Source: an uncultured Clostridia bacterium (GTDB taxonomy: Bacteria > Bacillota_A > Clostridia > Oscillospirales > Oscillospiraceae). Taken from it: 6,952 bases of DNA. The translations under genes were made by a program, and so were the position numbers. Each line of letters opens with the position of its first letter. Within the stretch, counting starts at the first letter, position 1. This document shows positions 1 to 6,952 of this stretch, piece after piece. Below the pieces are notes generated by a model. That model did no database searches and had not been told where the DNA came from. It saw only the letters and a list, made by a program, of their open reading frames with translations. The DNA lies in NCBI GenBank assembly GCA_949289625.1, contig CASEPH010000276.1:1-6952 (forward strand), read 5' to 3'.

Positions 1-166
1 AAACGAAAAGTCCGTTTTTCCCTTCCATGATCCGTACATCCCGCACGGCAAAACAGCCGTTCAGCGTAACCGAAGCGGTTGCTGCCACGGGGCCGTCCCC
101 TCGATAGGGAAAGATCCTCACATCCATCTCCATAGGGGACACTGTTGCTTTCATGTCGTTCTTCAT
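1..166 (-). CDS. spoVG: SpoVG-family DNA-binding protein, 3' end cut by window edge
   Basis: SpoVG proteins are small site-specific DNA- (and RNA-) binding regulators of Firmicutes, often carried on mobile elements. The visible 55 residues contain the family pattern: MDVRIFPYRGDG, then ATASVTLNGCFAVRDVRIM and EGKNGLFV, matching the usual SpoVG strand 'a-s-i-t-l-d-d-x-F-v-v-h-d-i-r-v-i-d-G-x-x-G-l-F-v'. The ORF is still open at base 1, so about half the protein is missing from the window. I chose the ATG at 166-164 because AGGAGG lies 8 bases upstream and because it overlaps the stop of the 218-aa gene as ATGA, a typical coupling junction. Later in-frame ATGs at 154, 133 and 127 are possible; family alignment begins only at about the MDVRI segment. 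It is the last gene visible in the operon. Known: family and DNA binding. Inferred: regulation of element or host genes. Confidence 0.82.
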   Translation of the reverse strand, partial: MKNDMKATVSPMEMDVRIFPYRGDGPVAATASVTLNGCFAVRDVRIMEGKNGLFV

Positions 167-819
167 GCCTTCATTCCTCCTGAATTTGATGAATTTTGGT
201 TAAGCCGCTCTAAAGTGCGGCGGACCAACAGGTCATACTCCCAGGGCTCAACTTCCAGAGAAACAAAAGCGCCGCCCTCCGTCAGACCATCCGCCATAAA
301 CTTAAGAATCAGCGGATGCTTCGAAGCGCAGCGTTTCCATTCTCTCAAGGGGATCCATCCTGTACCGGCGCGATACGCCAGCGTAATGGCGGAATCCTTT
401 GCCCGGTTTGCGTTCAGCCAGAGGTATTTATCCTTTAATTTTGAAGACAAGGAGTCACCTTTTGGAATTGGAACAATTGCGTCAGGCTGAAGGATGTACC
501 TAAGCCGCAAGGTGGTAATGCATGCCTGTGTTGCTGTTTCGGCCTCCTCCACATCAGCCCAGAGCGGAAACTGCTTGTAGTCAGAGGCCAGAATGTCTTC
601 GCCTTCTCTGTCATATTCAAAGAGCGGGACACATCGAGCGATCTCCAGACAATGTACCCCATCCGTCAGCCCAAGAGATTTTACTCCCGTGGCAGGCAGA
701 CTCACATAATGCGTCAACGCATCATCCAAAGACAGGAATTGGGACATCCGCCACCCGACCACGCCCTTAGGATCATGTCCCAAACGAAGATCATCCACCG
801 TGTAATAACTCAGATTCAT
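163..819 (-). CDS. YodL-like domain accessory protein, 218 aa
   Basis: No enzymatic function can be assigned. Residues 26-108 resemble the YodL-like/large-polyvalent-associated domain found in accessory proteins of Clostridial mobile elements: FLSLDDALTHY (28-38), SLGLTDG (48-54), EIARCV (59-64), then an acidic stretch and DYKQFPLW (80-87). The same order of motifs occurs in the protein at the right edge of the window. Residues 110-205 form a second region I do not recognise, with a KYLWL segment (131-135), WIPLREWKRC (155-164) and a predicted C-terminal helix. The last residues, a Ser/Asn/Gly linker followed by GGMKA, fit the tail shared by seven proteins here. No signal peptide or membrane segment is seen. 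The ATG at 819 has GGAGG five bases upstream, and the gap to the DUF3849 gene's stop is 12 bases. Gene reality is near certain; the domain call is from memory of family patterns. Confidence 0.75.
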   Translation of the reverse strand: MNLSYYTVDDLRLGHDPKGVVGWRMSQFLSLDDALTHYVSLPATGVKSLGLTDGVHCLEIARCVPLFEYDREGEDILASDYKQFPLWADVEEAETATQACITTLRLRYILQPDAIVPIPKGDSLSSKLKDKYLWLNANRAKDSAITLAYRAGTGWIPLREWKRCASKHPLILKFMADGLTEGGAFVSLEVEPWEYDLLVRRTLERLNQNSSNSGGMKA

Positions 820-831
820 ATTGCCTCCATT

Positions 832-1563
832 TCACTCCATCTTCATATCTGCCATGTTCTGATCAACATTCTGGCCTGTCAGTTCGTTCAGTTTTTCCTT
901 AGCCCACTCCGGCAGAAGATTCTCCTGCAGGACTCCGATGAAGTCAGATCGGTTCCATCTGGTGTGTTCTCCATCGCCCAGGCAGGTGCAGCGGATGGAA
1001 CGACCAATGGCGTGGGGACTACAGCCAAATCCATCATGGGCATACCAAAGCTGATTTTCCTGTGTCCAGCAGGATTCTCTCAGCGTGTCTGGACTCAGTA
1101 CCAGCACTTTCCCTTCGTAATCCAGATCCTCCCATGAATTGGGTTCACAATGTTCTGGGCCGAAAAGGTTCAGTTTCTGGTAAGCCTCCCGGACTTGGGA
1201 CACAAATCCATTCACCACCTCAGAGTGTGAATTAACAATAAACTCTACCTTGTGGCCCATGTCCTCAGGAATAAAGGTGCGCTGTGCCCAACTTCTGTTG
1301 TCGGGGCGGAATCGGCCATCGCCACTCTTTTCCTGGATGGTGTTTGCCAGTACCCAGTTCACCCGCTTAAACCCAAACTCTTCCAATACCTCTTTGGCGC
1401 AGTCCTCTTTGAGGTGCATACCATCAAAGCCTTGTCGGATACTGTCCTCAATCGCCTTTTTACAGGCGATGTTGGCCTGATGACTGGCACGCCATAGGGC
1501 AATCTGGCCGCTGCGTCTGGCTGCGTCCAGGCCGTCTGTATAGAGGTAGGTATCATTCCTCAT
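832..1563 (-). CDS. DUF3849 domain protein with a second conserved C-terminal region
   Basis: The N-terminal half (about residues 5-130) matches DUF3849: YLYTDGLDAA, WRASHQANIACKKAIEDSI (24-42), an EVLEEFGFKRVNWVLANTIQ segment and DGRFRPDNRSWA (82-93). These proteins are common on Clostridial conjugative elements and have no established biochemical role. Residues 148-225 form a second block, DYEGKVLVLSPD (148-159), QLWYAHDGFG (171-180), GRSIRCTCLGDGE (187-199), RWNRSDFIGVL (202-212) and LPEWAKEKL (217-225), which I also associate with this family. Cysteines at 165, 181, 192 and 194 might bind a metal, but this is speculation. The C-terminus NMADMKME fits the shared tail. The ATG at 1563 overlaps the 122-aa gene by 11 bases and uses a purine-rich GGAGG inside that gene's last codons, so translation is probably coupled. 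It sits between a putative regulator and a YodL-like gene. Confidence 0.85.
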   Translation of the reverse strand: MRNDTYLYTDGLDAARRSGQIALWRASHQANIACKKAIEDSIRQGFDGMHLKEDCAKEVLEEFGFKRVNWVLANTIQEKSGDGRFRPDNRSWAQRTFIPEDMGHKVEFIVNSHSEVVNGFVSQVREAYQKLNLFGPEHCEPNSWEDLDYEGKVLVLSPDTLRESCWTQENQLWYAHDGFGCSPHAIGRSIRCTCLGDGEHTRWNRSDFIGVLQENLLPEWAKEKLNELTGQNVDQNMADMKME

Positions 1564-1921
1564 CTACTTCATCCTCCACCGCCAGGAGCAGGCGCAGGCC
1601 ATCCGGGTTGGCGCCTGCCCCCAGAAGATCATCCAGCACATCCTCATCCACGGTATCGAGGGGATCCGGGAGATCCAGGACATCGACGATTTCATTGCTG
1701 GCGTCCACCAACTGGAGAACCAAGGAGTCGATCACTTCATTGAGGTGGGTAATCGTGATGATGGCTTGCCGCGGCGTGATGTCCTCCCGGCTGATCAGGA
1801 TGCTGCCTGCATCTGCCTGGATGGTCAGCTGCTCCGCGTCAGCCAATTCAGCCATCTGCATGGCGGGGAAAGGAATTTTCTGATTTCTGTTCTCGGGATT
1901 ACGATGTAATACAAACTTCAT
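1553..1921 (-). CDS. Highly acidic 122-aa protein, possibly AbrB/SpoVT-like
   Basis: This small protein carries about 27 Asp/Glu against about 7 Lys/Arg by hand count, a net charge near -20. The N-terminal 45 residues (KIPFPAMQMAEL, then QLTIQADAGSILISREDI) loosely resemble the swapped-hairpin fold of AbrB/MazE-type DNA-binding proteins. The C-terminal third (PDPLDTVDEDVLDDLL, then a NPDGLRLLLAVEDE segment) recalls the acidic helical tails of AbrB-like proteins in Clostridia. The match is weak, and an acidic DNA-mimic role is an alternative. It starts at an ATG nine bases after AGGAGG; that SD overlaps the TAG stop of the methylase gene. Its own 3' end overlaps the DUF3849 gene by 11 bases. 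Unlike most neighbours it lacks the Met-x-Met type tail and ends in acidic residues. Gene reality is well supported by spacing; function is unsure. Confidence 0.72.
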   Translation of the reverse strand: MKFVLHRNPENRNQKIPFPAMQMAELADAEQLTIQADAGSILISREDITPRQAIITITHLNEVIDSLVLQLVDASNEIVDVLDLPDPLDTVDEDVLDDLLGAGANPDGLRLLLAVEDEVDEE

Positions 1922-1937
1922 TTCAAATTACCTCCTA
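1919..1937 (-). promoter_or_regulatory. Stop codon embedded in ribosome binding site, methylase to 122-aa gene
   Basis: TAG (1937-1935) ends the methylase and runs straight into AGGAGG (1936-1931), nine bases before the ATG at 1921. This fixes the start of the 122-aa gene and implies coupled translation. Confidence 0.78.
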
Positions 1938-2909
1938 GTCTGCTTTTAAGATTCTGCGAGGCCGGTGCAGGATGACAGGTTCCCACATGGCCTCAGTTGC
2001 CTGCCCAAAGATATCCAGTTGCTTATTCAGGTAGGGGCTGGGATCGTAGTTGGTGATGATCAACTCCCTGAAGGTGGAACCTTCGGTCTGTGACAGCGGA
2101 TTGGTTCGTTTCAAGGAGATGATGAAAAAATCATCTTTGTACAGATCAATGATCCGGTCATCATAGCCGTAGGAGATGATCACATACCCCTTACATGAAC
2201 TTGCCCTGTCGTGAAGGATGATGTGGTGTTCCGGAAGGAATCGCACATCATAGACCTTTTCTGTCAGCATATAGGGTGGATCTGCATAGATGATTCCGTC
2301 CGGACGGTCCTCCTTGGGGATCAGCACAAGGGCATCCTGATGTTCCAGGAAAATGCTGTCCATTCGTCTTGAAACCTGGGGAAGTTTATCCACGATTGCC
2401 TGCGGGTCCACAGTTTTAATGCCAACAGAATTTCCTGTCCCACTGAAACTGCCGTAAGTGGTGAACAGAAAAGCCGCTGCCCGCCGCACATCAAAAAGTT
2501 TTGCGTTGCCATCCAGGATCGTGAGCAGTTCGCGGATCTCTTCTTCGGTAAAACAAGTGGACTCCGCTACAACTCGTTTCTCCTCCTCAATATGCCGATA
2601 GAAGTCCGGCTCATGAGCGGCCATATCGCGGTAGAAGGCGAAGGGTGTCCTGCCATGCACCGGCAGAAACTTCAGTTCTTTGGCCAGTGAGAACGATTTT
2701 TCTTTGACGCAGCAAAACACATTGAACAAATCGTCGTTCAGGTCGTTGTAGATGTCCAGCCGCCCTTTCTTCGGCTGCAGCCCTAAGATGACAGCGCCGC
2801 TGCCGCCGAACACCTCTGTAAACTGTTTCACATGGGGCGGTATCAGTTGGTGGATGTAGGGGACAAGTTTCTCTTTGTTCCCCATCCATGGAAAGAAGGG
2901 CTTAGCCAT
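1935..2909 (-). CDS. Orphan D12-class (Dam-type) adenine-N6 DNA methyltransferase
   Basis: It would transfer a methyl group from S-adenosylmethionine to the N6 of adenine in a short DNA site. With the ATG at 2909 it has 324 residues. Motifs run in alpha-group order: PWMGNK (7-12, motif X), FGGSG (34-38, SAM-binding motif I), YNDLND (54-59, motif II region), a variable target-recognition region (about 79-200), DPPY (210-213, catalytic motif IV) and ISYGYDD (245-251). Length and motifs are complete, so it is likely active. No restriction endonuclease gene adjoins it, so I call it an orphan methylase that may protect element DNA on entry into a new host. An in-frame TTG at 2942 would add 11 residues, but the ATG at 2909 has AAGGTGG upstream and puts the conserved PWMGNK motif at the usual distance from the N-terminus. 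It overlaps the upstream gene by 8 bases. Target sequence is not readable from the protein; GATC is the family default but not proven. Confidence 0.93.
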   Translation of the reverse strand: MAKPFFPWMGNKEKLVPYIHQLIPPHVKQFTEVFGGSGAVILGLQPKKGRLDIYNDLNDDLFNVFCCVKEKSFSLAKELKFLPVHGRTPFAFYRDMAAHEPDFYRHIEEEKRVVAESTCFTEEEIRELLTILDGNAKLFDVRRAAAFLFTTYGSFSGTGNSVGIKTVDPQAIVDKLPQVSRRMDSIFLEHQDALVLIPKEDRPDGIIYADPPYMLTEKVYDVRFLPEHHIILHDRASSCKGYVIISYGYDDRIIDLYKDDFFIISLKRTNPLSQTEGSTFRELIITNYDPSPYLNKQLDIFGQATEAMWEPVILHRPRRILKAD

Positions 2910-3216
2910 TGCGATCCACCTTCTTTTCCCTGTAACTGCCAAGGCATCCTCTCATACTGCGGATGTCCTCCGTCAGGCCGTCTACCATACTCTGGAGAAA
3001 ATCCATGCTGTCGCAGAGTTCTTCAGCAGTGGCGGCATAGTAATAGCCGTACTGGTCACTGGCGATGGGGTTCTTTTTCTTCCGGAGCCTTTTTACCAGC
3101 TTTTGAAGGTCCTTGACATTGATTCCCAGCATCCGAGCCAGTTCTTTGCCGCTTTTCCTGTTTTCACGGCCATGGCAGGTGCTTTTCAGGCAATCCAATA
3201 ACTTGTCATCTCGCAT
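2902..3216 (-). CDS. Small winged-helix-like DNA-binding protein, 104 aa
   Basis: The protein is short and basic in its first half. Residues 22-61 look like a helix-turn-helix with a wing: SGKELARMLGINVKDL (22-37) gives two helices joined by a GIN turn, QKLVKRLRKKKNPI (38-51) continues the recognition helix, and SDQYGYYYA (53-61) would form the beta-wing. Residues 62-97 are predicted to form a long helix with heptad-like hydrophobics, perhaps for dimerisation. A DNA-binding regulator or replication accessory is the natural reading; I do not recognise the exact family. It is the first gene after the intrinsic terminator, has AAGGAGG five bases before its ATG, and overlaps the methylase start by 8 bases, so it probably controls or accompanies the methylase. 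It lacks the shared Met-x-Met tail. Confidence 0.78.
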   Translation of the reverse strand: MRDDKLLDCLKSTCHGRENRKSGKELARMLGINVKDLQKLVKRLRKKKNPIASDQYGYYYAATAEELCDSMDFLQSMVDGLTEDIRSMRGCLGSYREKKVDRNG

Positions 3217-3257
3217 AAGTGCCTCCTTTTCCGGGGTGTTTTCCCGAAAAAGGGCGC

Positions 3258-3301
3258 AAAAAAAGAAGGGGCCGTTTTGTCCCTTTCGGAAAAACGGCCC
3301 C
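3258..3301 (-). terminator. Strong intrinsic terminator inside the gene cluster
   Basis: Read on the minus strand, GGGGCCGTTTT (3301-3291) pairs perfectly over 11 bases with AAAACGGCCCC (3278-3268) around a 12-base loop, followed by TTC and a run of seven T (3264-3258). It lies 18 bases after the stop of the 342-aa gene and only 42 bases before the start of the 104-aa gene. This is a textbook Rho-independent signal for the upstream transcript. The downstream gene has little room for a separate promoter, so partial readthrough or regulated antitermination is possible. Confidence 0.9.
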
Positions 3302-3319
3302 TAATGTGATATGCGGTTG

Positions 3320-4348
3320 TTACATTGTCATCTCTGGTCCACGTTCTGGTCGGCTGTATTCGTAGATGACTTCTTGCCCATTCCTGGCGGCATAGCCATG
3401 GTCGGTCGCGGACAGTCCAAACTTTGCCATATGGTGCTGAGCATAGCCCACAGCATCAAAACACCGGTTGAGCAGTGGATCCTGGTCAAGTATGCCCTCC
3501 TTTCGGGCCAGGTCCATACCGTACCGGGCAAGATCCACGCCACGGGGAATAAATTCGTAGCAGTGGAGGTTTTGGGACAGATCCAGTGCCAGATCTAATC
3601 GGTGGCAATCCTCCAGTTCTATGACACACTGCCATTTATCCATCCAATGCGGTTCCCCCTGACCTCGCTCCGCCCAGACATAACCGAAATCAATGGCATG
3701 GCGCACCAAGTCACCGGCAGTGTCATACTGGGCAAGAATGTTGGTAATCTGGGGCAGGGCACAGTCCACATCCACCGCCATACACTGATCCAGCGTTTCT
3801 GCGTCCAGCGAATCCAATCCAAGCAGCAGTTCATCCGGATGGGCTGCATCCATGTACTCCCCGGTATCGGGAAAGCCAATCCAGACGCCCTCCATATTGT
3901 TTCGGCTGACCAGTTTGATGCGAATGGCGTAATCGCCAACCGCTGGAGCCTCCGTATTTGGCTCAAAGTTCAGAAGGTCCGGGTTGCGCGTCAGTCGTTC
4001 TACATAGTGGTGCCCCACAAAACTGCCCGAACCGATCTCGCGATAGGCCGCCCCGACAATCTCCGGATCAAGGTAGCCCCGTGCCGCGGGCGTCGGGGTG
4101 TGGATGTGCTCCATGACAAAACGCCCAAGCGACACATCGTCATCAGCCCCATAGAGGAGTCGGTAATGTTCCAGGCCCTGCAGAATCTGGATGGTTTCCT
4201 GGGCAGTCCTGGGATGCTCGATCTGCATGGCGCCTTGGAACAGCAGTTCTTCTTTCGCTGTCATGTTTTCAAACCGCTGCTCCAGCCAGTCGTGTTCTGA
4301 TTTGTTCAACTCCATCCCATTGAGAAGGGGGGAGAGCCGGTGTTTCAT
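3320..4348 (-). CDS. ArdA-like antirestriction-type multi-domain protein, 342 aa
   Basis: I recognise this as an ArdA-like/large-polyvalent antirestriction-type protein of Clostridial elements, by pattern rather than by search. Residues 12-116 align by eye with residues 68-177 of the neighbouring 201-aa protein: FQGAMQ (37-42), DVSLGRF (71-77), YREIG (102-106) and FVGHHYV (110-116). A middle part follows: YAIRIKLVS (140-148), GVWIGFPDTGEYMD (154-167), PDELLLGLDSL (171-181), then CALPQITNILAQYD (196-209). The C-terminal part has AIDFGYVWAERGQGEPHW (218-235), LDLALDLSQNLHCYEFIPRG (251-270), ATDHGY (314-319) and IYEYS (328-332). The last residues GPEMTM carry the shared tail. Its ATG overlaps the upstream stop as ATGA, with a GGAGGTGAT ribosome site inside the upstream coding end, so it should be translationally coupled. 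Proposed role: acidic inhibitor of host restriction or a related host process. The fold and target are inferred. Confidence 0.75.
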   Translation of the reverse strand: MKHRLSPLLNGMELNKSEHDWLEQRFENMTAKEELLFQGAMQIEHPRTAQETIQILQGLEHYRLLYGADDDVSLGRFVMEHIHTPTPAARGYLDPEIVGAAYREIGSGSFVGHHYVERLTRNPDLLNFEPNTEAPAVGDYAIRIKLVSRNNMEGVWIGFPDTGEYMDAAHPDELLLGLDSLDAETLDQCMAVDVDCALPQITNILAQYDTAGDLVRHAIDFGYVWAERGQGEPHWMDKWQCVIELEDCHRLDLALDLSQNLHCYEFIPRGVDLARYGMDLARKEGILDQDPLLNRCFDAVGYAQHHMAKFGLSATDHGYAARNGQEVIYEYSRPERGPEMTM

Positions 4349-4950
4349 GTGCTCATCACCTCCATCTGCGGACCGCAGTGGGACTGCGAGTAACTCACAT
4401 CCAGGTCGCTGTGCTGCACAACATAGCCACCAGAGATGAATACGCCGCCCTCCTCCATCCTGGCCTTGCGGCCAATGGCCTCATAATCCAGGATTTCATA
4501 CAGTTCCTCCGGAAGACCGTGGGGGAGCACAGGAAAGTCATTGTCCACATAGAAGTGGCCCAGCTGCTTATCATTTTCAACTCCCGGTGCGATATGACAG
4601 CAATCCACACTGTTGGCAAGGTCGATCAACCGGCACAGAGGCAGTTCCGTCATCCCTTTATCCAGATCCATGCGGACGAGCCCCTCAAACGCCGCTTCCT
4701 GGGTGGGATCAAACTCTGCCAGTTTCCCTGCCAGAAGATTCAGTTCTTTCAGATCCATATCCTCCGGCATGTGATCCAAAAGGTATTCTCGGCCACAGTA
4801 GTCTGACACCTCTGTATAGAGCGGGAACCCCTTGTTCATTTCCAGCAGAAGTGTGTCCAGTCTGTCCTGTGCGGCAGGGAGATCCACAAGATGGTATTCC
4901 GTGCTATCCATTTCCAGGGGACTGACATACACGGTCAAAACTTTTTTCAA
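4345..4950 (-). CDS. ArdA-like acidic antirestriction-type protein, TTG start, 201 aa
   Basis: ArdA proteins mimic B-form DNA and occupy the DNA-binding groove of type I restriction enzymes. This protein has about 38 Asp/Glu and 14 Lys/Arg by hand count, consistent with mimicry. Motifs include LTVYVSPLEM (5-14), ELNLLAGKLAEF (69-80), FEGLVRMD (88-95), DCCHIAPGVENDKQLGHFYV (116-135), LPEELYEILDYEAIGRKARM (146-165) and GGVFISGGYVV (168-178), which I recall from the ArdA-like family of Clostridial elements. The second half is paralogous to the N-terminus of the next protein. The start is TTG, supported by AGGAGGG six bases upstream and the natural MKKVLTVYV beginning. The last codons for QMEVMST also form the ribosome site of the next gene, so its tail similarity is less certain than in the other genes. 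Assignment to ArdA itself, rather than to a related accessory family, is moderate. Confidence 0.75.
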   Translation of the reverse strand: MKKVLTVYVSPLEMDSTEYHLVDLPAAQDRLDTLLLEMNKGFPLYTEVSDYCGREYLLDHMPEDMDLKELNLLAGKLAEFDPTQEAAFEGLVRMDLDKGMTELPLCRLIDLANSVDCCHIAPGVENDKQLGHFYVDNDFPVLPHGLPEELYEILDYEAIGRKARMEEGGVFISGGYVVQHSDLDVSYSQSHCGPQMEVMST

Positions 4951-4963
4951 TCGTATCCCTCCT
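4948..4963 (-). promoter_or_regulatory. Ribosome binding site that decides a TTG start
   Basis: AGGAGGG (minus strand, 4963-4957) sits six bases before TTG AAA AAA. There is no in-frame ATG near it, and the first downstream methionine (residue 14) would cut off the conserved LTVYVSPLEM beginning. A TTG start with a strong SD can lower translation relative to ATG neighbours. Confidence 0.75.
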
Positions 4964-4989
4964 CATTCCTTAATTTTGCAGGCAGGAGA

Positions 4990-5469
4990 TTACTGCAGAG
5001 CCATCCCATCGCCCTCTGCACAAGTGGGCTCTTCACCATCGAAATCCCCGCCGCCGAACATCTCCTCTGCGGCTTTCATGTACGCATCGTAACGCTGGGA
5101 GTATTCGGCATAATTTTCGCCGCCGATCTCCTCCAGAAATTCCTTCTTGAAGCCCCAGAGCGGGTATTCGCAGAAGCCACTCATCTTCCGCAGGCCGGTA
5201 TCCTCCGCAATCCCTTGATCGAGCAGCTGCTGTGCAAACCGGCAGTTATTGGTGTCAATATAGGCACAGTCCTTGAGGCCGATAAATTCTCCGAAGGAAA
5301 CGGTCAGTGTTGCGTAAGGTTCCATCTCATCGGGTTCTCCCATAACTTCGTCCAGAACAATGGCAAGGCCGGGCATTTCCCGCCCCATAAAGTCCCGTAC
5401 CGAGTAGAGTTCCACCCGAGGCTGAAGTTTCACAGGGGCTCCGAAGTAATCAGTAATTTCAAGGATCAT
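4990..5469 (-). CDS. DUF4313-like acidic protein, 159 aa
   Basis: I recognise the DUF4313 pattern: DYFGAPVKL (7-15), a RDFMGREMPGLAIVLDEV segment (25-42), EPYATLTVSFGEFIGLKDCA (50-69), YIDTNNCRFAQQLLDQGIAE (70-89), then DTGLRKMSGFCEYPLWGF (90-107). The domain is widespread in accessory regions of Clostridial mobile elements and has no known activity. By hand count there are about 32 Asp/Glu and 12 Lys/Arg, a net charge near -20, which would suit a DNA mimic, though no experiment is known to me. Residues 115-139 look helical, followed by a Gly/Glu/Asp-rich flexible linker and the tail GDGMALQ, of the shared type. The ATG at 5469 follows AAGGAGG by about eight bases. The gap to the upstream gene is 36 bases with no hairpin or promoter that I can see, and the downstream gap is 39 bases. 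Confidence 0.82.
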   Translation of the reverse strand: MILEITDYFGAPVKLQPRVELYSVRDFMGREMPGLAIVLDEVMGEPDEMEPYATLTVSFGEFIGLKDCAYIDTNNCRFAQQLLDQGIAEDTGLRKMSGFCEYPLWGFKKEFLEEIGGENYAEYSQRYDAYMKAAEEMFGGGDFDGEEPTCAEGDGMALQ

Positions 5470-5505
5470 ATCCGTAAACCTCCTTTTCAGTAAGTGCTCT
5501 ATGGA

Positions 5506-6489
5506 TTAACCCAGAGTCATGTCTTCAGATTGCTGTGCCTGGTGCTCCTCATACCATTTGGGGTCCGCACCGGGCACATCCCAGCCGCACATACTGCCGG
5601 TGAGCATAGCCTGCTCCTGAGCAGTTGTGATCCCACGGCGCTGGTTGTTGTAATCTGCCAGGTAGCGGTTCTGGGCCCTGTCCCCGGTGCTCCACTCGCT
5701 GGGGTAGTAGCCGCTTTCCCCGCGCTTGATACAGATCAGGGTCCCCTCTCCGGGAAGGACGGACCAGCAGAGATCCGGCAGACGGGTAAGAGAATCGGGG
5801 GAAAACTTTTCTTCTTCCGTCTGGATGCTCCAGTTGCTGGAGTTCCAGAGGCTCACATAGAGTTCACCCTCTTGCAGGTCAATGGCACGCTGCTCAAAGC
5901 CCTCGCCCCAGCCATCGGAGGCCTGTCCTGCAATATAGTCCGCCAGTTTTTCCTTCTCCTCCGGCAGAAGATCACCCATTACCCTGCACTCCGCCACACA
6001 CCAGAGTTGTCCGTTTCGGCTCTCCACATCGAATACTACCGACTGCACCTTGTCGTTTACACTATCCTGTTTATCGTACCAGTGCATCAGGCCGCGACTC
6101 TTTTCCTGCGGTATCTGATTCTCCAGCAGAGCCTCATGGATGCACGACTGATAGTCCCGCAGATCACGCCCAGTTAGGTCTTCCCCATATTCCTCCAGAT
6201 CGCCCCAGTCATCACGTCCATAGAGTTGGGCGGAGAGCGGCATGTAGAATTTCAAAGTCTGGGGTTCTGGGGGCATGATCTTAAAGCGATCCTCGCCAAT
6301 CCGGAGGGCAAGGCCACTGCCGTTGTCCCACCTGATGTGAAACTGTGCGTCATCATCGATATACTTGAGCGTTCCCATACTGCCGGGGGAAAGTGCGTAG
6401 GGATCATCTTTCATTTCCGTCAATCGGATGCGAGACCCCTTGGGATACTGTTCCCGCAGAAAGTCCAACCACTCTTTTTGTACCTGCAT
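5506..6489 (-). CDS. DUF4314-containing accessory protein, 327 aa
   Basis: The N-terminus (about 16-72) matches DUF4314, a small SH3-like beta-barrel: YPKGSRIRLTEM (15-26), DPYALSPGSMGTLKYIDDD (29-47), then HIRWDNGSGLALRIGEDRF (51-69). The middle region (78-228) contains LKFYMPLSAQLYG (79-91), MHWYDKQDSVNDKVQSVVF (135-153), AECRVMGDL (166-174), GQASDGWGEGFEQR (188-201) and ELYVSLWNSSNWSIQTEEE (209-227), a block I recall in such proteins but cannot name. A C-terminal segment (267-313) has STGDRAQNRYLADYNNQRRG, TAQEQAMLTGSMCGWDVPG and ADPKWYE. A Gln-rich linker and DMTLG end the protein, fitting the shared tail. The ATG at 6489 follows AGGAGG by six bases; that SD overlaps the upstream gene's TAG stop. 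No membrane or secretion signal is seen. Biochemical function is unknown; binding of nucleic acid or of a partner by the barrel is only a guess. Confidence 0.83.
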   Translation of the reverse strand: MQVQKEWLDFLREQYPKGSRIRLTEMKDDPYALSPGSMGTLKYIDDDAQFHIRWDNGSGLALRIGEDRFKIMPPEPQTLKFYMPLSAQLYGRDDWGDLEEYGEDLTGRDLRDYQSCIHEALLENQIPQEKSRGLMHWYDKQDSVNDKVQSVVFDVESRNGQLWCVAECRVMGDLLPEEKEKLADYIAGQASDGWGEGFEQRAIDLQEGELYVSLWNSSNWSIQTEEEKFSPDSLTRLPDLCWSVLPGEGTLICIKRGESGYYPSEWSTGDRAQNRYLADYNNQRRGITTAQEQAMLTGSMCGWDVPGADPKWYEEHQAQQSEDMTLG

Positions 6490-6502
6490 CTTGCACCTCC
6501 TA
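6487..6502 (-). promoter_or_regulatory. Stop codon embedded in the next gene's ribosome binding site
   Basis: On the minus strand the sequence reads TAGGAGGTGCAAGATG: the TAG stop of the YodL-like gene shares its A and G with the AGGAGG of the DUF4314 gene, whose ATG follows six bases later. The same device occurs at 1937-1919 between the methylase and the 122-aa gene. It suggests that ribosomes ending one gene feed the next. Confidence 0.8.
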
Positions 6503-6952
6503 CATGGTCATGCCCTGATTTGGGCCCATATTTTCCAACTCTTGATGGAGTTGTTCTACTGCCTCGAAAATAGTTGGATCGTTTTTAAAACTCTCCAGTT
6601 TCTGATAGTCCTCAAAGAAGGTTTGCTCTCCGTCAACCATACGGACAATGTCAACTGTGGCGAATGCATCTTTTGTGACGCCAAGTCGTTTCTCTGGGCG
6701 GTCACTGCCTTGATATAGTCGGATCGCCTCATCCAGTGAAAGATCCCGATAGAGTTGTTCCTGCGGGGTGTTACACTCTGTCATCACAAACCAGTCGTAA
6801 GTGTGGGGGATGGAAGGGTTTGCCACATCTCGAAGAGCCTGCATTCCTTTCTCGGTCAGGCCATAGTTGCATGCTCGCCGGGGATTTTCTTCGCCTGCAA
6901 AATTCAGCAGGATATCATCCACTGCTTTTCGGACTGTGGGATCATCCGTCAG
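6500..6952 (-). CDS. YodL-like/large polyvalent accessory protein, 5' end cut by window edge
   Basis: The frame is open through base 6952, so the true start lies outside; 150 residues are visible. The GTG at 6922 is only an internal valine codon, not a good start: the ten codons before it stay in frame and no Shine-Dalgarno precedes it. Visible residues 29-60 (NYGLTEKGMQALRDVANP, then HTYDWFVMTEC) lead into a YodL-like domain: LYRDLSLDEAIRLYQ (67-81), RPEKRLGVTKD (85-95), ATVDIVRMVDGEQ (98-110), FFEDYQKLESFKNDP (112-126) and a final helix AVEQLHQELEN (131-141). Such domains occur in large accessory proteins of Clostridial mobile elements, often fused to other modules, so the missing N-terminal part may be long. 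It ends in GMTM, the clearest form of the shared tail. The TAG stop is part of the SD of the next gene. Function unknown. Confidence 0.82.
   Translation of the reverse strand: MTDDPTVRKAVDDILLNFAGEENPRRACNYGLTEKGMQALRDVANPSIPHTYDWFVMTECNTPQEQLYRDLSLDEAIRLYQGSDRPEKRLGVTKDAFATVDIVRMVDGEQTFFEDYQKLESFKNDPTIFEAVEQLHQELENMGPNQGMTM

What the first reader, a model, noticed from the sequence alone, without database searches (positions are those of the whole stretch)
163..6511. Seven unrelated proteins in one operon share a short C-terminal Met-x-(Met/Leu/Val/Ala) tail
Seen directly: C-termini are GPNQGMTM (6500), SEDMTLG (5506), GDGMALQ (4990), GPQMEVMST (4345), RGPEMTM (3320), ADMKME (832) and SGGMKA (163). 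In each, a flexible linker rich in Gly, Gln, Asn, Glu, Ser or Pro precedes Met, one residue (Thr, Ala, Lys, Glu), a hydrophobic residue, and 0-3 more. The proteins belong to different families. The Thr in the three MT(M/L) tails is coded ACC, ACT and ACA, and the stops are TAG, TAA and TGA, so recent DNA copying is unlikely. Inference: a short linear motif read by one common partner, for example a type IV coupling protein carrying these proteins into the recipient, a protease, or a shared assembly factor. Caveat: the 4345 tail is also shaped by the next gene's SD.
Basis: partly seen in the sequence, partly recalled or inferred. Interest (0 to 1): 0.72.

Follow-up and report, generated by a model that had tools for sequence, protein, structure and literature searches.

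The report
Shared tail tagging conjugative-element proteins
Many otherwise different proteins of a family of gut-bacterial conjugative elements, and the DNA-transfer enzymes of smaller elements that probably borrow their machinery, end in the same short methionine-rich tail, which looks like an address label for the transfer channel.

Summary
The seven tails are in the window; six hold up in relatives. Proteins of related Oscillospiraceae elements end in M-x-[MLIVF] plus 0-4 residues in 384/1554 called genes, against 1.4-4.0% when the same proteins are cut back and 16/495 in chromosomal control genes. The tail remains where no called gene starts within 150 nt downstream (51/412 vs 10-15/412 in cut controls) and is absent from predicted membrane proteins (0/156 vs 124/443 soluble). 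SGGMKA (163) is not conserved, and the 3320 and 4345 proteins share an ArdA-like region. The telling result lies outside the window: small mobilizable elements in which no relative of the element's VirD4 or VirB4 was found carry the tail on their MobL/MobP3 relaxase (12/13 intact ones, 13/13 with Ile allowed) but on 5/225 other genes nearby, one of those a Fic protein whose listed homologues are tailed in 98/120. Relaxases of another family in the same genomes are not (1/26). Best explanation: a C-terminal recruitment signal for this type IV secretion system, sending relaxase, anti-restriction proteins and Fic into recipients. The conjugative elements' own relaxases match poorly (3/15).

The parts
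6503..6511 (-). C-terminal MTM tail of the 6500 protein (gene 6500-6952, 5' end outside the window)
   Evidence: orthologues end GMTM, GMSMGGM, GMTMGGL; 23/41 family representatives match
5509..5520 (-). C-terminal MTLG tail of the DUF4314 protein (gene 5506-6489)
   Evidence: 36/47 family representatives match; alignment A4: conserved domain, variable linker, then GGMTLG-like end
4993..5004 (-). C-terminal MALQ tail of the DUF4313 protein (gene 4990-5469)
   Evidence: only two close orthologues, L001 and L036, both tailed; four distant ones are not
4348..4365 (-). C-terminal MEVMST tail of the ArdA-like protein (gene 4345-4950); its stop codon overlaps the start of the next gene
   Evidence: close orthologues end GPQMEVMSP, longer relatives GGMEMM, GGMELG
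3323..3331 (-). C-terminal MTM tail of the 3320 protein (gene 3320-4348), followed by a GC-rich inverted repeat and T-run
   Evidence: orthologues end EPEMTM, EPTMSM, GMTMQ
835..846 (-). C-terminal MKME tail of the DUF3849 protein (gene 832-1563)
   Evidence: 85 of the 120 listed database homologues match; AlphaFold model: residues 232-243 have pLDDT < 50 after a confident domain
166..174 (-). MKA end of the 163 protein (gene 163-819): present but not conserved, not counted as a tail
   Evidence: 0/16 family representatives match
2..166 (-). 5' part of a SpoVG-family gene cut by the window edge; its counterpart in the nearest whole element ends GPTMAM
   Evidence: family 22/27 tailed; a family member is SpoVG PF04026
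2902..3216 (-). tail-less HTH-like gene of the operon (internal contrast)
   Evidence: 1/37 representatives match
1935..2942 (-). tail-less Dam-type DNA adenine methylase (internal contrast)
   Evidence: PF02086; 0/36 match
1553..1921 (-). tail-less small protein (internal contrast)
   Evidence: 0/39 match

Best explanation
[quoted passage not shown] A flexible linker presents [G/E/Q]-M-x-[M/L] plus 0-4 residues; a receptor, most likely the VirD4 coupling protein or an adaptor on it, binds the tail. The soluble element proteins that carry it (ArdA-like, DUF4314, DUF3849, YodL and SpoVG in the main set; single LPD28 and amidoligase cases in low-GC relatives) would enter the recipient with the DNA and protect or establish it there. 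Mobilizable elements without their own T4SS put the same tail on their relaxase, and some on a Fic protein, to use the channel in trans. Shown: the tail, its conservation, its restriction to soluble proteins of these elements and to relaxase and Fic of the mobilizable elements, its rarity in the other contexts examined. Inferred: binding partner, translocation, function in the recipient.
For: Enrichment: 384/1554 vs 1.4-4.0% in truncation controls; inside 14 of 15 element regions 124/599 plus-strand genes vs 6/193 genes outside. Soluble only: 0/156 predicted membrane proteins vs 124/443 soluble. 11 of 46 clusters with at least 5 representatives are tailed in at least 40%, among them ArdA-like, DUF4314, DUF3849, SpoVG and YodL. 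Not only a ribosome-binding-site effect: next called start >150 nt away 51/412 (cut controls 10-15/412); 61-150 nt 49/261 (2-8/261). Mobilizable elements: 12/13 intact relaxases tailed (13/13 with Ile allowed; 13/14 and 14/14 counting one broken mid-gene, L237) vs 5/225 other called genes in the same stretches, one of the five being the Fic protein; no relative of the G003 element's VirD4 or VirB4 found there by tblastn; 117 of the 120 best of 7995 homologues tailed, all at least 86% identical to the query. Fic protein: PF02661 in L222 and L305; 98 of the 120 best of 1788 homologues tailed, 65-91% identical. Genome G001 has one PF02534 match, in its tailed element, and two mobilizable elements with tailed relaxases. 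Specificity: 1/26 relaxases found through PF03432, 6/158 genes in stretches round PF03432 relaxases. Partial relatives of the DUF4314 protein in viral contigs, a phage and a plasmid record 0/18 rows. Disorder. Two relaxases outside MobL (PF03432 E 1e-37 to 1e-38, no PF18555 match) end in the same GHKxDDHEE..QTM module as MobL relaxases.
Against: No binding partner or translocation was tested. The relaxases of the conjugative elements themselves are the weakest match: 3/15 strict, 6/15 with [MIL].[ML], many ending EEISLR, EEPVQQLR, EEQTMG. In G109 and G161 the relaxase ends DHAPHQSY or DHAPQQSY although nearby genes end GMSMSM. The operon's methylase, HTH-like protein and 1553 have no tail (0/36, 1/37, 0/39), so not all soluble genes are marked. 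In the DUF4314 family the codons are partly dictated by the next gene's SD and TTG start, and across tailed genes Gly GGA (0.39 vs 0.17 in bodies) and Leu CTT (0.34 vs 0.10) are over-used. In the low-GC regions pooled, matches were 25/296 vs 16/296 in the cut-20 control: 5/22 in G156, 4/33 in G168, 6/55 in G174, 1-3 genes in each of the other five. Coupling proteins outside PF02534 were not searched for, and only 20 kb or less round each mobilizable relaxase was seen. Many loci are close relatives (five of the mobilizable relaxases about 90% identical or more), so counts overstate independence.
Confidence: 0.66

Rival explanations
1. Docking tail for another element protein that stays in the donor (relaxosome or oriT hub, partition complex, condensate). 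Tailed proteins gather there and need not be exported.
For: The relaxase is both relaxosome member and export substrate, so the mobilizable-element data fit. SpoVG and toprim-type proteins may be DNA-related. Gly/Met-rich tails could be sticky (inference).
Against: A Fic protein and ArdA-like proteins have no obvious donor relaxosome role (inference). The small protein beside the mobilizable relaxase in L222, with a weak RHH_1 match below the cut-off, is not tailed. A mobilizable element would need a helper element's protein chiefly at the coupling step (inference).
Confidence: 0.17
2. Degradation tag: a C-terminal degron read by ClpXP or a similar host protease, limiting the level of early proteins.
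For: Short hydrophobic C-termini are classical protease signals (recalled). The tail is disordered in the one model made.
Against: The host protease is the same for all elements in a cell, yet relaxases and genes of other element types in the same genomes rarely have the tail, nor do chromosomal genes. It is hard to see why mainly relaxase and Fic of mobilizable elements should carry it.
Confidence: 0.09
3. Nucleotide-level by-product: the end of each gene carries the SD and start of the next gene (GGA GGx ATG), read in frame as G-G-M.
For: DUF4314 family: GGA GGG ATG ACC CTT GGA TAA overlaps the next gene's SD and TTG start; bias to GGA and CTT in tails.
Against: Tails remain frequent where the next called start is 61-150 nt (49/261 vs 2-8/261 in cut controls) or >150 nt away (51/412 vs 10-15/412) (called genes only, so missed genes could blur this). 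In the window MTLG persists in other codons without overlap. Mobilizable relaxases carry it. M-x-M itself is not explained by an SD.
Confidence: 0.05
4. Chance or lineage inheritance of an old C-terminus.
For: Many loci are related.
Against: 11 of 46 clusters carry it, and so do mobilizable relaxases and Fic; linker and codons vary.
Confidence: 0.02

Closest known systems
BID domain plus positively charged tail of Bartonella Bep/VbhT effectors and rhizobial TraA relaxases (PMC5675462, PMC10025392; passages seen)
   Same: One C-terminal signal shared by relaxases and Fic proteins and read by a VirB/D4 T4SS; VbhT is translocated alongside plasmid transfer.
   Different: BID is a domain with a positively charged tail; here about 4-8 residues, Met-rich, not basic, on 11 or more clusters, in Clostridia. 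No BID family appeared among the Pfam hits of the proteins scanned.
Short C-terminal T4SS signals of Agrobacterium VirF/VirE2 and Legionella or Coxiella effectors (PMC10025392; passages seen)
   Same: Short C-terminal signal that can act on unrelated proteins.
   Different: Those export into eukaryotic cells from Gram-negative bacteria; signals are Arg-rich (recalled) or E-block types, not M-x-M.
Conjugative protein translocation by the F-type plasmid pED208: ParA, ParB, SSB, PsiB, PsiA (PMC8406263; abstract and passages seen)
   Same: Maintenance and anti-SOS proteins enter the recipient with the DNA.
   Different: No shared C-terminal motif appears in the passages seen; Gram-negative.
Polyvalent proteins of phages and conjugative elements (PMC5512222; passages seen)
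   Same: Overlapping domains (ArdC/ArdA-type, large polyvalent protein domains) and the same idea of delivery into the recipient.
   Different: The passages seen describe no common C-terminal delivery tail; the word methionine does not occur in its main text.

Membership tests
C-terminal T4SS translocation signal (functional kind) | Located at the extreme C-terminus, after a flexible linker | tested here: met
   (one model)
C-terminal T4SS translocation signal (functional kind) | Shared by non-homologous proteins, including the relaxase | tested here: met
   11 of 46 clusters tailed in at least 40%; mobilizable relaxases 12/13 intact; but conjugative-element relaxases only 3/15 strict, 6/15 relaxed
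C-terminal T4SS translocation signal (functional kind) | Occurs with a cognate coupling protein and not in other contexts | tested here: inconclusive
   in favour; but pooled low-GC regions are weakly enriched (25/296 vs 16/296), coupling proteins outside PF02534 were not searched, and no clade-by-clade census was made
C-terminal T4SS translocation signal (functional kind) | Necessary and sufficient for transfer of a reporter into recipients | not testable with these tools
   needs a mating experiment
C-terminal T4SS translocation signal (functional kind) | Binds the coupling protein or an adaptor | not testable with these tools
   no complex prediction was available
BID-domain signals | BID domain upstream of the tail | tested here: not met
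   no BID family among Pfam hits of the proteins scanned
SD/start-codon overlap artefact | Tail disappears when no gene starts directly downstream | tested here: not met
ClpXP-type degron | Tail-dependent proteolysis | not testable with these tools
   needs a half-life assay

The most novel reading that the evidence does not exclude
A widespread C-terminal address label, M-x-[M/L], defines the protein cargo of a whole class of Gram-positive conjugation machines. Roughly 6-14 soluble proteins per element, many of them anti-restriction or polyvalent types, are co-delivered with the DNA, and mobilizable elements parasitise the same receptor by carrying the label on their relaxase and a Fic protein, so cargo could be predicted from the last eight residues.
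Probability: 0.5. Interest if true: 0.87.

Novelty: new variant of a known kind. Interest (0 to 1): 0.8.

Why it matters
How Gram-positive conjugation systems choose protein substrates is little known (my reading of the field, and the passages seen give no such signal for Firmicutes elements). If right, the tail gives a sequence rule that predicts which proteins enter the recipient, turns many DUF families of gut mobile elements into candidate anti-defence proteins, and explains how mobilizable elements plug into a helper's channel. It is directly testable.

Tried and rejected
A near-identity search of phages and a distant search of plasmids with the whole window found nothing. The structure search with the DUF3849 model gave no match at E <= 0.001. 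The idea that relaxase and cargo share one exact tail per element was looked at in other MobL lineages and not borne out (G109 and G161 relaxases end HQSY or QQSY). A class-wide MobL search hit 13 of 148 genomes; several of those loci were miscalled and were not counted. The SD-overlap explanation was taken seriously after and rejected as the sole cause. SGGMKA was dropped as a member. DUF4313 (4990) had too few orthologues to judge. Gene calls are from my own codon-score caller, so starts are approximate; stops matter here. Rows dropped: of 20 stretches fetched round further MobL hits, L223, L227 and L240 (remnants) and L238 (frameshifted near its end) were left out of the mobilizable-element count, L225 and L236 were set aside because VirD4 is present, and L237, broken mid-gene, is counted apart; element G003a was left out of the interior count because its DUF4314 gene was not found among the called genes; 4 of 30 loci (L255, L257, L258, L265) gave no usable relaxase in the PF03432 comparison, and only those 30 of the more than 100 matches were looked at.
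Full report
Observation. The window holds the 3' ends of ten genes on the - strand. By a fixed pattern R = M.[MLIVF].{0,4}$ six of ten match; SGGMKA (163) does not. Pfam: 5506 DUF4314, 4990 DUF4313, 4345 ArdA, 832 DUF3849, 1935 D12-class (Dam-type) methylase; 6500, 3320, 2902, 1553 and 163 have no match over the cut-off. The gene cut by the left edge corresponds to a SpoVG-family gene of relatives.

Relatives. One scan of genome contigs with the DUF4314 protein kept the best 80 of 266 loci, with titles of Oscillospiraceae and other Clostridia where named; three close viral-collection loci (L001-L003) look like the same elements. The nearest whole element lies in Flavonifractor sp. AGMB03687 (L030; region listed), where the same genes end GMTM, GGMTLE, MEVMSP, PEMTM, GMKME and, for the SpoVG-type gene, PTMAM.

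Is it more than chance? In 83 loci, 384 of 1554 called genes match R; the same proteins truncated by 10 to 50 residues match in 1.4-4.0%. Met makes up 10% of the last eight residues and 2.2% of the bodies. Evenly spaced chromosomal stretches of two host genomes gave 8/266 and 8/229; two of the G001 hits turned out to be a mobilizable-element relaxase and its Fic neighbour. In 14 of 15 element regions (one skipped) 124/599 interior plus-strand genes match vs 6/193 genes outside; all 124 are soluble by a simple hydropathy rule, and 0/156 predicted membrane proteins match. The regions are not all independent (G001 and G002a are near twins by their tails). The typical tail is G (56%) or E, then M, then T/E/S/Q/K, then M (56%), L (26%) or F (10%), then 0-4 residues (286 of 1513 representatives).

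Conservation and shape. Per cluster (85%-identity representatives): ArdA-like cluster (3320 and 4345 together) 66/133, DUF4314 36/47, 6500 family 23/41, DUF3849 24/35, SpoVG 22/27, 224-aa family 16/35, 465-aa family 8/8; no tail in the methylase (0/36), HTH-like 2902 (1/37), 1553 (0/39) and 163 (0/16) families. Of the 120 listed of 1740 database homologues of DUF3849, 85 match. Alignment A4 (19 proteins) shows a conserved domain, a linker of about 4 to 45 residues, then an end mostly of the form GGMTLG. The AlphaFold model of the DUF3849 protein has mean pLDDT 86 and is below 50 in residues 232-243 only.

DNA-level rival. In many relatives the DUF4314 gene end reads GGA GGG ATG ACC CTT GGA TAA and contains the SD and TTG start of the next gene, and GGA and CTT are over-used in tails. 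So part of this family's tail is dual coding. But genes with the next called start 61-150 nt away match in 49/261 (four cut controls 2-8/261) and beyond 150 nt in 51/412 (10-15/412). In the window there is no overlap and MTLG is kept with other codons.

What kind of element. The G001 element has Tad-type pilus genes (RcpC/CpaB, T2SSE), a VirB4-type ATPase, a VirD4 coupling protein and a DUF3991/toprim protein. The relaxase of the related G003 element is MobL (PF18555); two named homologues of the mobilizable relaxase are called MobP3. Many relaxases of these elements end in KKIAxGHKxDDHE-like sequence followed by a few residues, some tailed (HEPEMQL, EEQQPEMTM), many only hydrophobic-x-hydrophobic or less: 3/15 strict, 6/15 relaxed.

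The decisive comparison. Twenty stretches round further MobL hits were fetched: two hold VirD4 (L225, L236), three hold remnants, one relaxase is frameshifted near its end, one (L237) is broken mid-gene, and 13 are intact relaxases of small integrative elements in which no relative of the G003 element's VirD4 or VirB4 was found by tblastn. The relaxases end GGMTMGW (four), NMTMDGM, GSMTMGM, GGMVMGGM (two), GGMGMGGM, GGITMG, PTMTMG, WTMTMG, WPEMTM; the L237 piece ends DEGMTMY. That is 12/13 intact by R and 13/13 with Ile allowed (13/14 and 14/14 with L237), against 5/225 other called genes in the same stretches; one of the five is the Fic protein and one a 40-aa ORF that is probably spurious. 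Five of the relaxases are about 90% identical or more to L226, leaving about ten independent cases. In the protein database 117 of the 120 best of 7995 homologues are tailed, all at least 86% identical to the query. In G001, PF02534 matched once in the whole genome, in the tailed element, while two such mobilizable elements are present; coupling proteins of other families were not searched. Next to the relaxase in L222, and about 3 kb from it in L305, lies a Fic-domain protein (PF02661) with HPFREGNGR and the ends QMDMEMTMP and FDMSMQL; 98 of the 120 best of 1788 homologues are tailed. A 55-aa ORF just upstream carries S-x-x-x-E-G, which resembles the inhibitory motif of Fic antitoxins (recalled).

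Specificity. Relaxases found through PF03432 in the same genomes: 1/26 by R (loci). Stretches round such relaxases, chromosomal flanks included: 6/158 genes. Partial relatives of the DUF4314 protein in viral contigs, a Bacillus phage and a plasmid record: 0/18 rows by R (one, L004, ends TMGGM), with crude gene/706 overall; whether those contigs hold a T4SS was not checked. Two MATFTA-type relaxases outside the MobL family (PF03432 at E 1e-37 to 1e-38, no PF18555 match) share the end module KIALGHKEDDHEEE(Q/P)TWQQTM, so that module seems portable. In low-GC Clostridia regions the same tails appear (G156: MGGMSMG on an LPD28 protein, GMTLG, MGMQMGGM, TMDMTM; G168: GMTMSM, FSMSMNQ on an amidoligase-domain protein), but pooled counts there are weak (25/296 vs 16/296), probably because most genes in those stretches are not element genes.

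Mechanism. Shown: a C-terminal, disordered (one model), conserved short motif on many soluble proteins of one conjugative-element class and on relaxase and Fic of its probable parasites. Inferred: it binds the T4SS receptor (VirD4 or adaptor) and sends these proteins into the recipient. Precedents: VbhT, a Fic protein translocated with a signal shared with the relaxase (PMC5675462, passages), F-type plasmid maintenance proteins translocated with the DNA (PMC8406263, abstract and passages), and polyvalent proteins proposed to be delivered (PMC5512222, passages). Reviews on T4SS substrates were seen in passages only (PMC7434980, PMC10025392, PMC12857230) and show no such Gram-positive signal there.

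Prior art. In ten full-text searches none of the rows shown describes this tail in title or abstract start; the listings are capped and the papers were mostly not opened. A search for two or more of DUF3849, DUF4314, DUF4313, YodL, DUF3846, DUF4316 found no paper. Many subscription papers, and bioRxiv preprints, are not held.

Noticed in passing
L109-L112 (G001 element): A Gram-positive conjugative element with Tad/Flp-type pilus genes (RcpC/CpaB, T2SSE ATPase) between the cargo operon and the VirB4/VirD4 genes, suggesting a pilus-assisted Gram-positive conjugation machine.
   Followed up: partly
L222:7885-8679 and L305:14828-15615: A Fic protein with an HPFREGNGR motif and an M-x-M-type tail, preceded by a 55-aa ORF with an S-x-x-x-E-G motif: a likely Fic toxin-antitoxin pair on mobilizable elements, like VbhT/VbhA in plan.
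   Followed up: partly
L247, L262 (also L315, L316): MATFTA(V/I)KNR relaxases (PF03432, not MobL) end in the same KIALGHKxDDHEE...QTM module as MobL/MobP3 relaxases: possibly a swapped C-terminal docking module.
   Followed up: partly
DUF4314 genes of relatives, e.g. in G012, L075, L042, L102: The last codons are dual coding: the SD and TTG start of the next gene lie inside the codons for GGM-x-LG or similar.
   Followed up: yes
VirB4-type proteins, e.g. L132:774-3134, L111:7747-9597: They end LFGxAGGR or LYGTGGGR in the six of ten representatives shown (L236 ends RFGKAGGK): a second conserved C-terminus of unknown meaning.
   Followed up: no
G109 and G161 regions (L294, L292): MobL relaxases there end DHAPHQSY or DHAPQQSY instead of M-x-M: perhaps a second tail type.
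   Followed up: no
L304:5917-6960: An amidoligase_2-domain protein (PF12224) with tail FSMSMNQ in a low-GC element.
   Followed up: no
L226:9390-11195, L222:8746-10518, L239:9260-11206: Mobilizable MobL relaxases carry Sel1 repeats (PF08238) between the relaxase domain and the C-terminal module; their role is unknown.
   Followed up: no
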